Shown here in pieces: positions 11,043 through 24,559 of a DNA stretch of 35,322 nucleotides. Both the position numbers and the translations under genes were made by a program. The stretch's first letter is position 1, and the number at the start of each line of letters is the position of its first letter. The notes below the pieces were generated by a model. It was given only the letters and a program-made list of their open reading frames with translations. It made no database searches and had not been told where the DNA came from. Origin of the DNA: Solirubrobacterales bacterium (GTDB taxonomy: Bacteria; Actinomycetota; Thermoleophilia; Solirubrobacterales; Solirubrobacteraceae); contig DAIDJO010000049.1 in the NCBI GenBank assembly GCA_027451345.1, forward strand, positions 1 to 35,322, in the 5' to 3' direction.

Positions 11043-12134
11043 TCAGGCGACCGTCACCTCGTTCGCCAGGTAGACGTTCTGGATCGCGTTGAGGATCTCC
11101 ACGCCCTCGGCCATCGGGCGCTGGAACGCCTTGCGGCCGCTGATCAGTCCGGTGCCGCCGGCGCGCTTGTTGATCACCGCGGTGCGCACCGCCTCGACCA
11201 GATCCGAATCTCCCGAGGAGGCGCCGCCGCTGTTGATCAGGCCGGCCCGACCCATGTAGCAGTTGGCCACCTGGTAGCGGCAGAGGTCGATCGGGTGATC
11301 GGTGGTGAGCTCGCTGTAGACCTTCGACGAGGTCTTCCCGTACGAGCCGCCGTTCGCGTTCATCGCCCCGTAGCCGTTGTTGTTCTCCGGGAGCTTCTGC
11401 TTGATGATGTCGGCCTGGATCGTGACCCCGAGGTGGTTCGCCTGGCCGGTGAGGTCGGCGGCGAGGTGATAGTCCGCCTCCGCCGTCTTGAAGGCGGGGT
11501 TGCGCAGGTAGCACCACAGCACGGTGAACATGCCGAGCTGGTGAGCCTCCTCGAAGGCCTGGGAGACCTCCTGCAGCTGGCGCGTCGACTCGTCGCTGCC
11601 GAAGTAGATCGTGGCGCCGACGCCGGCGGCGCCCATCTCCCAGGCGCGGTTGACACTGCCGAACATCACCTGGTCGAAGCGGTTGGGATACGTGAGCAGC
11701 TCGTTGTGGTTGAGCTTGACGATGAACGGGATCCGGTGCGCCCACTTGCGGGCGACGGCCCCGAGCACGCCGAAGGTCGAGGCCACGGCGTTGCAGCCGC
11801 CCTCGACGGCGAGCTCGACGATCCGCTCGGGGTCGAAGTAGATCGGGTTGGGCGCGAAGCTCGCGCCCGCGCTGTGCTCGATCCCCTGGTCGACCGGCAG
11901 GATGCTGACGTAGCCCGTTCCGCCCAGCCGCCCGTGGTCGAACAGCTGGCGCAGCGAGCGGAGGGTGGCGGTGCTGCGATCGGTGTCGAGCATCACCCGC
12001 TCGATGAAGTCGGGGCCCGGCAGGTGCAGCATCGACGCGTCGATCGTCTGGCAGCGGTGCCCGAGGAGGTCATCCGCCTCGGCGCCGAGCAGGCCGGCAA
12101 TCGAGGTCGCGGTGGGTTCGGTCGCGGTGGCCAC
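11043..12134 (-). CDS. fbaB: Class I fructose-bisphosphate aldolase (DhnA/FbaB type)
   Basis: Schiff-base aldolase (363 aa) that interconverts fructose 1,6-bisphosphate with glyceraldehyde 3-phosphate and dihydroxyacetone phosphate in glycolysis/gluconeogenesis. The DhnA-type TIM barrel shows [13 protein letters not shown] near residue 78, [10 protein letters not shown] near 136, and ADIIKQKLP near 241, where K245 is the likely Schiff-base lysine. [12 protein letters not shown] near the C-terminus is the phosphate-binding end. The GTG at 12132-12134 has an excellent AAGGAGG ribosome site. It is convergent with serS and divergent from the acetate module. A TAACCT box at 12168-12173 (minus) could be its -10. 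Confidence 0.95.
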
Positions 12135-12386
12135 GTAGGTCCTCCTTGGGGAGTCGGTCTCCGGCTGAGGTTACCGACCGTCCCGCCCCTACGCCGCGGT
12201 GGGGGCGCTTCCGAGCCCAGGCGTCAAAAGCGCGATCCGTTCAGTGGAACGCCGGTCGTAAGTGACGCTCGGCGCGCCCGGGAGGGCCACCGCAGAGGCC
12301 CCTCGGGGCGACCCGTACAGGACCGCAACAGGATTGGGGATTCCTGCGCGCGAATGCAGTCTGCCCAACGCGGTAACTTGTACGCA

Positions 12387-12402
12387 TGTGACATATGTCA
12401 CG
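12387..12402. promoter_or_regulatory. CRP/GlxR-type palindromic operator upstream of the acetate genes
   Basis: TGTGACATATGTCACG fits the CRP/GlxR consensus TGTGA-N6-TCACA at nine of ten fixed positions. The core GTGACATATGTCAC (12388-12401) is a perfect 14-bp palindrome, and symmetry continues outward to 12385-12404 with one mismatched pair. It lies 25 bases before the satP start in the 292-base gap 12135-12426, which holds no gene and otherwise only the promoters of the divergent aldolase and satP. CRP activates acs in E. coli and GlxR controls acetate genes in corynebacteria, which makes the position meaningful. Whether it activates or represses depends on the transcription start, which I cannot fix. 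Confidence 0.65.
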
Positions 12403-12426
12403 TGTCCTGCGAGGAAGGGAGCAGAG

Positions 12427-13062
12427 TTGGCCACAGTAAGCGAGGAAGGGCTCGCCAGCGGACGTCAGGCGGGCACCTCGAGCATGACCGGCGGCGCGGG
12501 TTGGCTGCCGGCGAATCCGGCGCCCCTCGGCCTCTCGGGCTTCGGCCTGACGACGCTGGTGCTGAGCTTCGTCAACGCCAACATCGTCGGTGGCGGTCCG
12601 GGTTCGTTCCCGATCGTGCTCGGCATGGCGTTGGGGTTCGGCGGCATCTGCCAACTGTTGGCGGGCATGTGGGAGTTTCGGACGGGCAACACCTTCGGCG
12701 CGGTCGCGTTCTCGTCGTACGGCGCCTTCTGGATCTCCTTCTTCATCCTGGTGAGCTTCAACGTCGCGCAGCTCCCCAAGACCGAGGTCCTGTCGCTGCT
12801 CGGGCTCTACCTCTGGATGTGGGGCATCTTCACCGGCATGCTGTTCCTCTGCACATTCGCCTCACCACGGGCCCTGCAGCTGCTGTTCCTGCTGCTGACC
12901 GTGACGTTCATCCTGCTCGGGATCGGGAACTCCGGCAACTCCAGCGGGATGATCCATGCGGGCGGATACGTGGGGATCGCCACGGGCGCCGTGGCCCTGT
13001 ACATCGCCTGCGCGGACATCATGCAGGCCGTGTACAAGCGCTCGGTGCTGCCGGTGGGCTGA
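12427..13062 (+). CDS. satP: Acetate/succinate transporter, GPR1/FUN34/YaaH family
   Basis: Six-helix inner-membrane transporter (211 aa) expected to take up acetate (or succinate) with protons. The family signature NPAPLGLSGFGLTTLVLS lies near residue 31, and a second conserved stretch FGGICQLLAGMWEFRTGNTFGA follows near residue 70. The TTG at 12427 was chosen because an AGGGAG ribosome site sits just upstream and the length then matches the family; an internal ATG at 12484 has no such site. Further upstream the frame runs through the operator region and is not coding. acs follows after 89 bases, so uptake and activation of acetate are neighbours. A CRP-type palindrome lies just upstream. 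Confidence 0.93.
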   Translation: MATVSEEGLASGRQAGTSSMTGGAGWLPANPAPLGLSGFGLTTLVLSFVNANIVGGGPGSFPIVLGMALGFGGICQLLAGMWEFRTGNTFGAVAFSSYGAFWISFFILVSFNVAQLPKTEVLSLLGLYLWMWGIFTGMLFLCTFASPRALQLLFLLLTVTFILLGIGNSGNSSGMIHAGGYVGIATGAVALYIACADIMQAVYKRSVLPVG

Positions 13063-13151: not shown

Positions 13152-15149
13152 ATGGCTACCGAGAACATGACGAGCGGGGAGGGCGAGCTCGAGCGGGAGC
13201 TCACCGGGATGCTCGAGATCGAGCGGTTCGATCCACCGGCCGAGTTCGTGGCCAGGGCGAACCTGACCGATCCCGCGATCTACGAGCGAGCCGAGGCCGA
13301 CTGGCAGGGCTGGTGGGCGAGTCAGGCGGAGCGTCTGCACTGGTTCCGCCGCTGGGACCAGGTGCTGGACGACTCCAACCCGCCGTTCTACAAGTGGTTC
13401 GTCGGCGGGAAGCTGAACGTTTCCTACAACTGCCTGGACCGCCACGTCGAGGCGGGCCTGGGCGGCCGTGTCGCCTACCACTGGCACGGCGAGGAGGGCG
13501 AGGAGGAGGAGATCACCTACGCCGACCTGCTCGCGCGGGTCAAGCGGTTCGCCAGCGCGCTGAAGGAGCTCGGCATCGGCAAGGGGGACGTCGTCGGGAT
13601 CTACATGGGGATGATCCCGGAGGTCGTCGTCGCGATGCTCGCCTGTGCGCGCATCGGCGCGGTCCACAACGTCGTGTTCGGCGGGTTCTCGGCCGAGTCG
13701 GTGCGGGAGCGCATGGAGTTCTCCCAGGCCAGGGCGCTGATCACGGTGGACGGCGCGGCGCGCAAGGGCAACGTCGCCGCGGTCAAGCAGCAGGTCGATC
13801 AGCACATGGGCGACCTCGACCACCTCGAGCACATCATCGTCGTGCGGGCCAAGGGCACCCCCTGCGAGATGCGGGAGGGGCGCGACGTCTGGTACCACGA
13901 GATCGTCGAGGCGGCGGACCCCGAGTGCCCGCCCGAGGAGATGGACGCCGAGGATCCGCTCTACATCCTCTACACCTCGGGATCGACGGCGAAGCCGAAG
14001 GGGATCCTGCACACCACCGGCGGGTATCTCGTCGGCGCGTCGAGCACCCACCAGAACGTCTTCGACCTCCACGCCGACACCGACACCTACTGGTGCTGCG
14101 CGGACGTCGGCTGGGTCACCGGCCACACCTACATCGTGTACGGCCCGCTCGCGAACGCCGCGACGAGCATCATGTACGAGGGCGCGCCGGACTACCCGCA
14201 CCGGGGCATCTGGTGGGAGCTCGTGCAGCGCTACCGCGCGACGATCTTCTACACCGCCCCGACCGCGATCCGGGCGTGCATCAAGTGGGGGCCCGAGCAC
14301 CCCGGCAAGTTCGATCTCAGCTCGCTGCGGCTGTTGGGGACGGTCGGCGAGCCGATCAACCCCAAGGCGTGGCTGTGGTACCACAAGGTGATCGGCGGGG
14401 AGCGCTGCCCGATCGTCGACACGTGGTGGCAGACCGAGACCGGGTCGATCATGATCTCGCCGCTGCCCGGCATCACCTCGACCAAGCCCGGATCGGCCAC
14501 GCGGCCGCTCCCCGGGATCCTTGCCGAGGTGGTGGACGAGCGGGACGGGACGCCGATCGAGGAGGGCCAGGGCCTGCTCGTGCTCAAGCGCCCGTGGCCG
14601 TCGATGCTCCGCACCCTGTACAAGGAGGACGAGCGGTTCGTCGAGACGTACTTCCGGCGCTTTGGCAACGAGACCTACCTCGTCGGGGACGCCGCGCGCC
14701 GGGACAAGGACGGCTACTTCTGGGTGATCGGGCGCATCGACGACGTCGTCAACGTGTCGGGCCACCGCCTCTCCACCGCCGAGCTCGAGTCGGCGATCGT
14801 CGCCTGCGAGGCGGTCGCCGAGGCGGCCGTCATCGGCCAGAGCGACGAGCTCACCGGGCAGGCGATCACCGCCTTCGTCACCCTGCAGGGGGAGCTCGAC
14901 GGCTCCGACGAGGTCGAGTCGCTGGTGCGGGCCGAGGTCGCGGAGCGGATCGGCAAGTTCGCCCGGCCCAAGCGGATCATCTGGGCCGACGACCTGCCCA
15001 AGACCCGCTCGGGCAAGATCATGCGCCGCCTCCTGCGCGACATCGCCGAGGGGCGGGCGCTCGGCGACGTCACCACCCTGCGCGACCCGACGGTGATGGC
15101 CGCGCTCGAGGAGAAGATCCGAGCCGAGCAGGCGTCGATCGAGGAGTGA
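13152..15149 (+). CDS. acs: Acetyl-CoA synthetase (AMP-forming)
   Basis: Cytoplasmic ligase (665 aa) that converts acetate, ATP and CoA to acetyl-CoA, AMP and pyrophosphate. Clear ANL-superfamily motifs are present: the P-loop ILYTSGSTAKPKGILH near residue 275, the acetate-pocket region with DVGWVTGHTYIVYGPL near 317, TWWQTETGSI near 425, and the hinge GRIDDVVNVSGHRLST near 530. The C-terminal motif PKTRSGKIMRR contains K622, the lysine that Gcn5-type enzymes acetylate to switch off Acs in many bacteria. The ATG at 13152 is preceded by GAGGGAGA about 11 bases upstream. Length is normal. It follows satP and ends before two tandem hairpins. Confidence 0.98.
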   Translation: MATENMTSGEGELERELTGMLEIERFDPPAEFVARANLTDPAIYERAEADWQGWWASQAERLHWFRRWDQVLDDSNPPFYKWFVGGKLNVSYNCLDRHVEAGLGGRVAYHWHGEEGEEEEITYADLLARVKRFASALKELGIGKGDVVGIYMGMIPEVVVAMLACARIGAVHNVVFGGFSAESVRERMEFSQARALITVDGAARKGNVAAVKQQVDQHMGDLDHLEHIIVVRAKGTPCEMREGRDVWYHEIVEAADPECPPEEMDAEDPLYILYTSGSTAKPKGILHTTGGYLVGASSTHQNVFDLHADTDTYWCCADVGWVTGHTYIVYGPLANAATSIMYEGAPDYPHRGIWWELVQRYRATIFYTAPTAIRACIKWGPEHPGKFDLSSLRLLGTVGEPINPKAWLWYHKVIGGERCPIVDTWWQTETGSIMISPLPGITSTKPGSATRPLPGILAEVVDERDGTPIEEGQGLLVLKRPWPSMLRTLYKEDERFVETYFRRFGNETYLVGDAARRDKDGYFWVIGRIDDVVNVSGHRLSTAELESAIVACEAVAEAAVIGQSDELTGQAITAFVTLQGELDGSDEVESLVRAEVAERIGKFARPKRIIWADDLPKTRSGKIMRRLLRDIAEGRALGDVTTLRDPTVMAALEEKIRAEQASIEE

Positions 15150-24166: not shown

Positions 24167-24559
24167 ATGTCCCGGTTCGCGAAGGTCAATCTGCTCGAGG
24201 TCGAGGACTCCGTCGCCGGCCGGGTCGAGGGGCTCGAGGGGCGGTTCGCTCGCGAGCAGCTGGGCTCGCGGGACCTCGGGGTGAGTCTGTTTCGATACGC
24301 GCCGAACCTGCGCAGTCCGATGGCGCACAGCCACCGGGAACAGGAGGAGGCGTATCTCGTCGTGGCCGGCTCGGGACAGATCCTGCTGGACGATGAGATC
24401 GAGGATCTCCGGACCTGGGATGTGATCCGCGTCGCACCCGAGGTGGTCCGGGCCTTTGCGGCCGGCCCCGACGGTCTCGACGTCATCGCGATCGGCGGCC
24501 CGAAGCCGGCGGAGGGCGACGGTGTCCGCGCCGAAGCGAACTGGCCGGTCTCGGGCTAA
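24167..24559 (+). CDS. Cupin-domain protein
   Basis: Small beta-barrel protein (130 aa) with a single cupin domain. HSHREQEEAYLVVAGSGQILLDDE near residue 50 gives cupin motif 1 with H-x-H and a downstream Glu as metal ligands; motif 2 (around residues 85-105) is degenerate and lacks an obvious His. It may be a metal-binding sensor or an enzyme with altered chemistry. The ATG at 24167 has an AAGGAG ribosome site five bases upstream, and TAGGGT at 24121-24126 may be the -10 box. Divergent from the DHA2 exporter and convergent with a LysR gene. Confidence 0.88.
   Translation: MSRFAKVNLLEVEDSVAGRVEGLEGRFAREQLGSRDLGVSLFRYAPNLRSPMAHSHREQEEAYLVVAGSGQILLDDEIEDLRTWDVIRVAPEVVRAFAAGPDGLDVIAIGGPKPAEGDGVRAEANWPVSG

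What the first reader, a model, noticed from the sequence alone, without database searches (positions are those of the whole stretch)
12385..12404. CRP/GlxR-type palindrome controlling the acetate uptake and activation genes
Seen: a 14-bp perfect palindrome, extending to 20 bp with one mismatch, matching TGTGA-N6-TCACA, 25 bases before satP. Known: CRP in E. coli and GlxR in corynebacteria bind this motif and control acetate genes. Inference: a CRP-family protein, perhaps cAMP-dependent, links satP-acs to carbon status in this lineage. It is the only such site noticed in the window and sits before the one gene pair where it would be expected. It may also affect the divergent aldolase gene.
Basis: partly seen in the sequence, partly recalled or inferred. 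Interest (0 to 1): 0.6.

Follow-up and report, generated by a model that had tools for sequence, protein, structure and literature searches.

The report
Conserved CRP-type operator before acetate genes
A short mirror-image DNA sequence just before a soil bacterium's acetate-uptake and acetate-activation genes is conserved in its relatives and looks like a landing site for a CRP/GlxR-type regulator, placed where it would more likely switch the genes off than on; the kind of site is well known.

Summary
The palindrome is real: GTGACATATGTCAC (12388-12401) is perfect, the 20-mer has one mismatched pair, and 25 bases separate it from the satP TTG start. The exact motif occurs once in the window (0.04 expected). 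It is an operator rather than chance: six relatives (Solirubrobacterales, including Conexibacter sp. S30A1) keep it 25-27 bp before satP, four exactly and two with 9 of 10 arm bases. Arm columns are invariant in 9 of 10 cases, spacer columns in 0 of 4, upstream columns in 19 of 129, although the window's upstream DNA has been replaced. One CRP-family protein (GlxR-like, G000:C17) and adenylate-cyclase domains exist in this 85%-complete genome. I change the mechanism: the site's centre lies 32 bp before the start codon, with the Shine-Dalgarno in between, so E. coli-style CRP activation does not fit; repression, as GlxR exerts on glyoxylate genes, does. Relatives also carry 21-bp-spaced repeats beside a divergent LytS/LytTR-symporter operon, a likely activator; the window lacks both. 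A second CRP paralogue (type B) is deleted here and has lost its pocket Glu in three relatives. Binding, ligand and direction of control are untested.

The parts
12388..12401 (.). perfect palindrome GTGACATATGTCAC, proposed CRP/GlxR-type operator (core)
   Evidence: arms conserved and spacer variable in six relatives
12385..12404 (.). extended palindrome with one mismatched pair (T12387/G12402)
   Evidence: inverted repeat I3
12413..12424 (+). purine-rich Shine-Dalgarno region of satP, between operator and start codon
   Evidence: sequence; purine-rich stretch also in relatives
12427..13062 (+). satP, acetate uptake transporter (GPR1/FUN34/YaaH), TTG start
   Evidence: Pfam PF01184, NCBIfam AceTr_1 over cut-off; start codon supported by relatives
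13152..15149 (+). acs, acetate-CoA ligase, same direction, 89 bases after satP
   Evidence: NCBIfam TIGR02188 over cut-off
11043..12134 (-). divergent class I fructose-bisphosphate aldolase; not next to satP in any fetched relative

Best explanation
The palindrome is a dimer-binding operator of a CRP/FNR-family (GlxR-like) regulator that sits on the core promoter or the start of transcription of satP-acs. When occupied, probably by the cAMP-bound protein, it most likely represses the genes, and it releases them when acetate has to be taken up and activated. In this genome the candidate regulator is the GlxR-like protein at G000:C17:4072-4746 (type A). In relatives, acetate-specific activation probably comes from a LytS/LytTR pair acting on direct repeats further upstream. 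Shown: the palindrome, its fixed position and conservation, a CRP-family protein with cNMP-binding and Crp-type HTH domains, cyclase domains, and the geometry. Inferred: which protein binds, that cAMP is the ligand, the direction of control, the transcription start, and that satP and acs are one operon.
For: Conserved 25-27 bp before satP in 6 of 6 non-duplicate relatives with at least 69% SatP identity and upstream sequence; four exact, two with 9 of 10 arm bases. Arms invariant 9 of 10, spacer 0 of 4, upstream 19 of 129, Fisher p 1.5e-6. Kept although the window's upstream DNA is only 36-42% identical to the relatives'. All sites, including the variant in G123, fit GTG(N)6GNCAC, the Streptomyces Crp motif (PMC10033298, passages). 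The only G000 protein where the cNMP and Crp-HTH matches coincide is closest to GlxR in the PDB. Type A and B share an RES-x-x-R recognition helix. Three of five type C CRP genes of the genus have TGCGACATTTGTCACA or TGCGACATTTCTCACA 43-45 bp before their own start. Cyclase domains in 8 of 8 genomes. Geometry: centre 32-34 bp before a well-supported start codon in 7 of 7, and a TA(A/T)TGT hexamer overlaps the left arm in 6 of 6 relatives. Precedent: GlxR represses glyoxylate-bypass genes with cAMP high on glucose, and its role depends on site position (PMC3972247, passages).
Against: No single CRP type accompanies the site: of 8 genomes with it, 5 have type A, 6 type B, and G149 neither. Type A and B genes have no such site upstream. 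In G123 the variant site lies 60 bp (centre) before the start codon, which would allow activation. The window lacks the TA(A/T)TGT hexamer (GCATGT instead) and no sigma-70-like promoter was found there. In G000 only 2 of 22 one-mismatch sites are intergenic, so no broad regulon is visible. No binding or expression data.
Confidence: 0.5

Rival explanations
1. CRP-type activator site: the regulator, with cAMP, switches satP-acs on as CRP does for acs in E. coli (recalled).
For: Same motif family; in G123 the spacing would allow activation.
Against: In the window and six relatives the centre is 32-34 bp before the start codon with the Shine-Dalgarno in between, and the start codon is well supported, so a centre at -41.5 or -61.5 (recalled class II and class I distances) would put the transcription start inside satP.
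Confidence: 0.17
2. Operator of a dimeric regulator from another family (for example TetR or GntR type).
For: A variable 4-bp spacer with conserved arms suits any dimer; neither type A nor type B fully co-occurs with the site.
Against: The sequence fits GTG(N)6GNCAC and TGTGA-N2-TA-N2-TCACA, published for Streptomyces Crp and GlxR, and a close variant precedes CRP genes of the genus.
Confidence: 0.2
3. An mRNA hairpin in the 5' leader of satP (attenuator or stability element).
For: The palindrome folds as a hairpin in 5 of 7 RNA stretches; in related genomes some exact matches look like hairpins after genes (L192, L193).
Against: In L051 and L052 the arm change is not compensated and the hairpin is not predicted; no z-score for the seven stretches is below -2.4; no terminator-like site found.
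Confidence: 0.08
4. Chance palindrome without function.
For: Looser matches to the motif are not enriched in the window.
Against: Exact motif expected 0.04 times in the window and kept at a fixed position in six relatives with a variable spacer.
Confidence: 0.03

Closest known systems
GlxR sites of Corynebacterium glutamicum
   Same: Consensus TGTGA-N2-TA-N2-TCACA; cAMP-dependent CRP-family regulator that represses two-carbon (glyoxylate) genes on glucose (PMC3972247, passages). The window's protein is closest to GlxR in the PDB.
   Different: Here the target is satP-acs in Solirubrobacterales; ligand and binding untested; the window site has one mismatch to the full consensus.
Crp sites of Streptomyces
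   Same: GTG(N)6GNCAC (reported for S. coelicolor, seen in PMC10033298, passages) fits the window site and all seven relatives' sites.
   Different: No regulon with this strict motif is visible in G000.
CRP control of acs in Escherichia coli (recalled)
   Same: Same motif family and same gene, acs.
   Different: Position relative to the start codon excludes the E. coli style of activation in the window and six relatives.
LytTR-type promoters, such as YpdA/YpdB of E. coli
   Same: Relatives carry a LytS/LytTR pair divergent to satP and 11-nt direct repeats at 21-bp spacing, as in 9-11 nt repeats with 11-13 nt spacers (PMC4847170, passages).
   Different: A separate, second element; missing from the window.

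Membership tests
CRP/GlxR-type operator | palindrome of TGTGA-N6-TCACA or GTG(N)6GNCAC type | tested here: met
   one mismatch to the first, exact to the second
CRP/GlxR-type operator | conserved upstream of the orthologous gene in relatives | tested here: met
   6 of 6 close relatives with upstream sequence; generally not beyond about 62% SatP identity
CRP/GlxR-type operator | CRP-family regulator in the same genome | tested here: met
   G000:C17, PF00027 + PF13545, GlxR group best in the PDB; PF00325 not found
CRP/GlxR-type operator | regulator type co-occurs with the site | tested here: inconclusive
   type A in 5 of 8, type B in 6 of 8, neither in G149
CRP/GlxR-type operator | cAMP-dependent binding of the regulator | not testable with these tools
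   only indirect: GE...R(S/T)A pocket motif kept in type A, cyclase domains in 8 of 8 genomes
CRP class I or II activator site | site centred about 61.5 or 41.5 bp before the transcription start (recalled) | tested here: not met
   would place the start inside satP in the window and six relatives; G123 alone would allow it; start site itself not mapped
Global CRP regulon motif | many intergenic sites across the genome | tested here: not met
   2 of 6 exact and 2 of 22 one-mismatch sites intergenic in G000; strict motif only
LytTR promoter | 9-11 nt direct repeats with 11-13 nt spacer beside a LytTR regulator | tested here: not met
   no repeat in the window and no such regulator found in G000; repeats and regulator are present in several relatives

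The most novel reading that the evidence does not exclude
A regulatory handover around a fixed operator. The satP-acs operator stayed in place while its surroundings changed: in the window's lineage the LytS/LytTR-symporter operon and its repeats are gone from beside satP, and the CRP paralogue of the nudix-ASCH cluster (type B) lost its pocket Glu in G051, G107 and G087 and was deleted in G000. A second GlxR-like paralogue (type A, beside a TetR-type regulator and fatty-acid oxidation genes, pocket motif kept) took over the same operator through a near-identical recognition helix.
Probability: 0.25. Interest if true: 0.5.

Novelty: new member of a known kind. Interest (0 to 1): 0.35.

Why it matters
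It gives a conserved, testable CRP-type operator in Solirubrobacterales, a soil lineage for which the one search made here listed no CRP regulon study among its first ten papers. It predicts repression, not activation, of satP-acs by a cAMP-type regulator, the reverse of the E. coli arrangement. The relatives add a second predicted input, a LytS/LytTR pair beside acetate genes, and the window's lineage offers a natural case of an operator outliving one of its candidate regulators.

Tried and rejected
Regulon by motif: GTGACNNNNGTCAC gives 71 sites against 18 for the reversed control in 9 genomes, but most sites whose surroundings I fetched lie in called genes, so the excess is no evidence of a regulon. 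In G000, 2 of 6 exact sites (satP, hemQ) are intergenic (satP), and 2 of 22 one-mismatch sites (19 of them, one, two in the window; the one at 24421 was placed only by ORF). Three 'genic' sites (L161, L166, L167) sit at gene junctions, where my crude gene caller may be wrong. Surroundings were fetched for all exact hits of G000, G051 and G133, for some of those of G087, G123, G149, G069 and G107, and for none of G066.

hemQ as a second conserved target: TGTGACGAGCGTCACA lies about 42 bp before hemQ in G000 and GTGGCAGGCGTCAC in G149, but no such site is seen there in G107, G087, G051, G069, G133 or G123. Autoregulation of type A and B: no close match upstream. mRNA hairpin, chance, activator and other-family readings: see rivals. 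A first tree had a wrong frame for G123 HemQ and was redone.

Papers: PMC10033298, PMC6023979, PMC4227749, PMC4847170, PMC3972247 and PMC4448153 were seen as passages only; all others as search listings. Recalled, from no call: E. coli acs control, CRP class I/II distances, the roles of the CRP pocket and recognition-helix residues.

Full report
Observation. The palindrome is present as described: 12388-12401 GTGACATATGTCAC, extending to 12385-12404 with one mismatched pair. GTGACNNNNGTCAC occurs once in the window (0.04 expected). Looser matches are not enriched (8 found, 6.06 expected). It precedes satP (TTG 12427) and acs (ATG 13152), whose identities are confirmed by Pfam and NCBIfam.

Where it is. 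The window is contig C49 of a 3.31-Mb, 133-contig genome, 85% complete. SatP relatives place it in Solirubrobacterales, near Conexibacter sp. S30A1.

Conservation. A search of 201 genomes of the order for SatP gave 69 with a match, and a named collection gave 54 loci. I scanned the upstream DNA of the 84 loci held (L019-L102); many are one genome held twice. Among non-duplicate loci with at least 69% SatP identity and upstream sequence, all six besides the window have the motif 25-27 bp before the start codon: four exact, two (L051, L052) with 9 of 10 arm bases. L053 has too little upstream sequence to tell. G123 (63%) has the variant GTGGCAAGTGGCAC 53 bp before its start. In G066 (62%) satP lies at the end of the chromosome record, and the DNA just before it reads like the end of an inserted transposase gene (my reading, not searched). 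Below that identity the palindrome is generally absent at this position; L037/L060 have one far upstream and L030/L057 a different palindrome (TTGTAAC...TTACAA). In the alignment of the window and six relatives the arms are invariant in 9 of 10 columns, the 4-bp spacer in 0 of 4, ungapped upstream columns in 19 of 129 (Fisher p = 1.5e-6). The only other 5-4-5 pattern as invariant lies in the conserved start of the coding sequence. The window's upstream DNA is only 36-42% identical to the relatives', and its divergent neighbour is an aldolase not found beside satP in any fetched relative. The operator persisted while everything upstream changed.

Candidate regulators. In G000, PF00325 gives nothing, PF00027 gives 10 matches and PF13545 gives 15; the two coincide in one protein, at C17. 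Its best PDB matches are the GlxR group (4cyd, 4byy, 3r6s; 96 bits). Among 28 genomes of the genus the protein finds relatives in 27, which fall by sequence into three kinds besides lone cNMP domains. Type A (55-74% identical) is in G087, G051, G107, G069 and G177. Type B (about 31-40%) is in most genomes, next to nudix and ASCH genes in G051, G107, G087, G069 and G066. Type C is in G202, G173, G204, G101 and G199; in three of these five the gene has TGCGACATTTGTCACA or TGCGACATTTCTCACA 43-45 bp before its start, which ties the motif to CRP genes of this genus. Adenylate/guanylate cyclase domains are in 8 of 8 genomes tested. Of the 8 genomes with the satP site (G000, G149, G087, G107, G051, G069, G133, G123), 5 have type A, 6 have type B and 7 have at least one; G149 (88% complete) shows neither.

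Loss of type B in this genome. The conserved ASCH neighbour lies at G000:C12:2553-2948. Beside it is the nudix gene and then, with no room for crpB, the gene that stands next to crpB in G123; the stretch holds no N. In G051, G107 and G087 type B has lost the glutamate of the usual GE motif, while G069, G133, G123 and G066 keep it; six of six type A proteins keep GE...R(S/T)A. Both types have an RES-x-x-R recognition helix. A SatP+HemQ tree sets G069, G133 and G123 apart from G000, G149, G087, G107 and G051. This suggests, without proving, that type A serves the operator here.

How it would act. The start codon is well supported: LAT(V/I)SE is conserved, three of six relatives (L049, L054, L055) have no other in-frame start before an upstream stop, and the internal ATG of the window is absent in L050 and L055. 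The operator centre is 32-34 bp from it in 7 of 7, with the Shine-Dalgarno between. A class I or II activator position would put the transcription start inside satP. In six of six relatives a TA(A/T)TGT hexamer overlaps the left arm, as expected if the site covers the -10 region; the window has GCATGT instead and no sigma-70-like promoter was found there. Repression is the better reading. GlxR is a precedent: cAMP-dependent, a repressor or activator according to site position, and a repressor of glyoxylate genes on glucose (PMC3972247, passages). G123's longer spacing would allow activation and is the main counter-example.

Second input in relatives. L050, L051, L052, L054, L055, L057 and L071 have, divergent to satP, genes for a LytS-type kinase, a LytTR response regulator and a sodium:solute symporter; L049 and L026 show the kinase on shorter loci (domains tested in L052 only). 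Repeats such as ACCGTTCGTCG and GCCGTTCGGCG stand at 21-bp spacing in L050, L051, L054, L055, L026 and L057; L049 and L052 show one copy under the strict pattern. This fits LytTR sites (9-11 nt repeats, 11-13 nt spacer; PMC4847170, passages). The window has none, and G000 shows no such regulator (hits cover the receiver part only), subject to 85% completeness.

Regulon. In G000 the exact motif occurs 6 times; two sites are intergenic, before satP and before a hemQ-like gene. The hemQ site is shared only with G149, in altered form. There is no sign of a broad CRP regulon with this strict motif; a degenerate one was not tested.

Verdict. An ordinary kind of element, a CRP/GlxR-type operator, well supported by conservation. 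Interest is moderate because of the position and the apparent turnover of regulators around a fixed operator.

Noticed in passing
L050, L051, L052, L054, L055, L057, about 98-140 bp before satP: Direct repeats at 21-bp spacing beside a divergent LytS/LytTR-symporter operon: a likely acetate- or pyruvate-type two-component control of satP-acs in relatives, missing from the window.
   Followed up: partly
G000:C55:45262-45277 (L107:2263): The only perfect TGTGA-N6-TCACA in the genome, about 42 bp before a chlorite-dismutase/HemQ-family gene; altered form in G149, absent before hemQ in six other relatives.
   Followed up: yes
L129, L131, L132, 43-45 bp before the gene: Type C CRP genes have a CRP-like palindrome before their own start, suggesting autoregulation.
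   Followed up: partly
G000:C12:2553-4781 (L219): The type B CRP gene is cleanly missing between the nudix gene and its usual neighbour.
   Followed up: partly
L170, L171, L172 (type B CRP proteins): The cNMP pocket motif has lost its Glu in genomes that also carry type A (G051, G107, G087), but not in G069.
   Followed up: partly
L030/L057 upstream of satP: A different palindrome, TTGTAACAGGGTTTACAA, stands before a 53%-identical satP that also has LytTR-type repeats; possibly the same design with another specificity.
   Followed up: no
L203 end and L027 start (G066): satP of a complete genome lies at the chromosome record's start, and the preceding DNA reads like the end of a transposase gene, about 11 bp before satP's start.
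   Followed up: no
L192:2244, L193:2275: Exact GTGACNNNNGTCAC matches that extend to long hairpins after genes, likely terminators, so motif counts mix operators with hairpins.
   Followed up: no
G051 (Conexibacter sp. S30A1): TTTGACGAGGATCACA recurs many times in the genome, as expected of a repeated mobile element.
   Followed up: no
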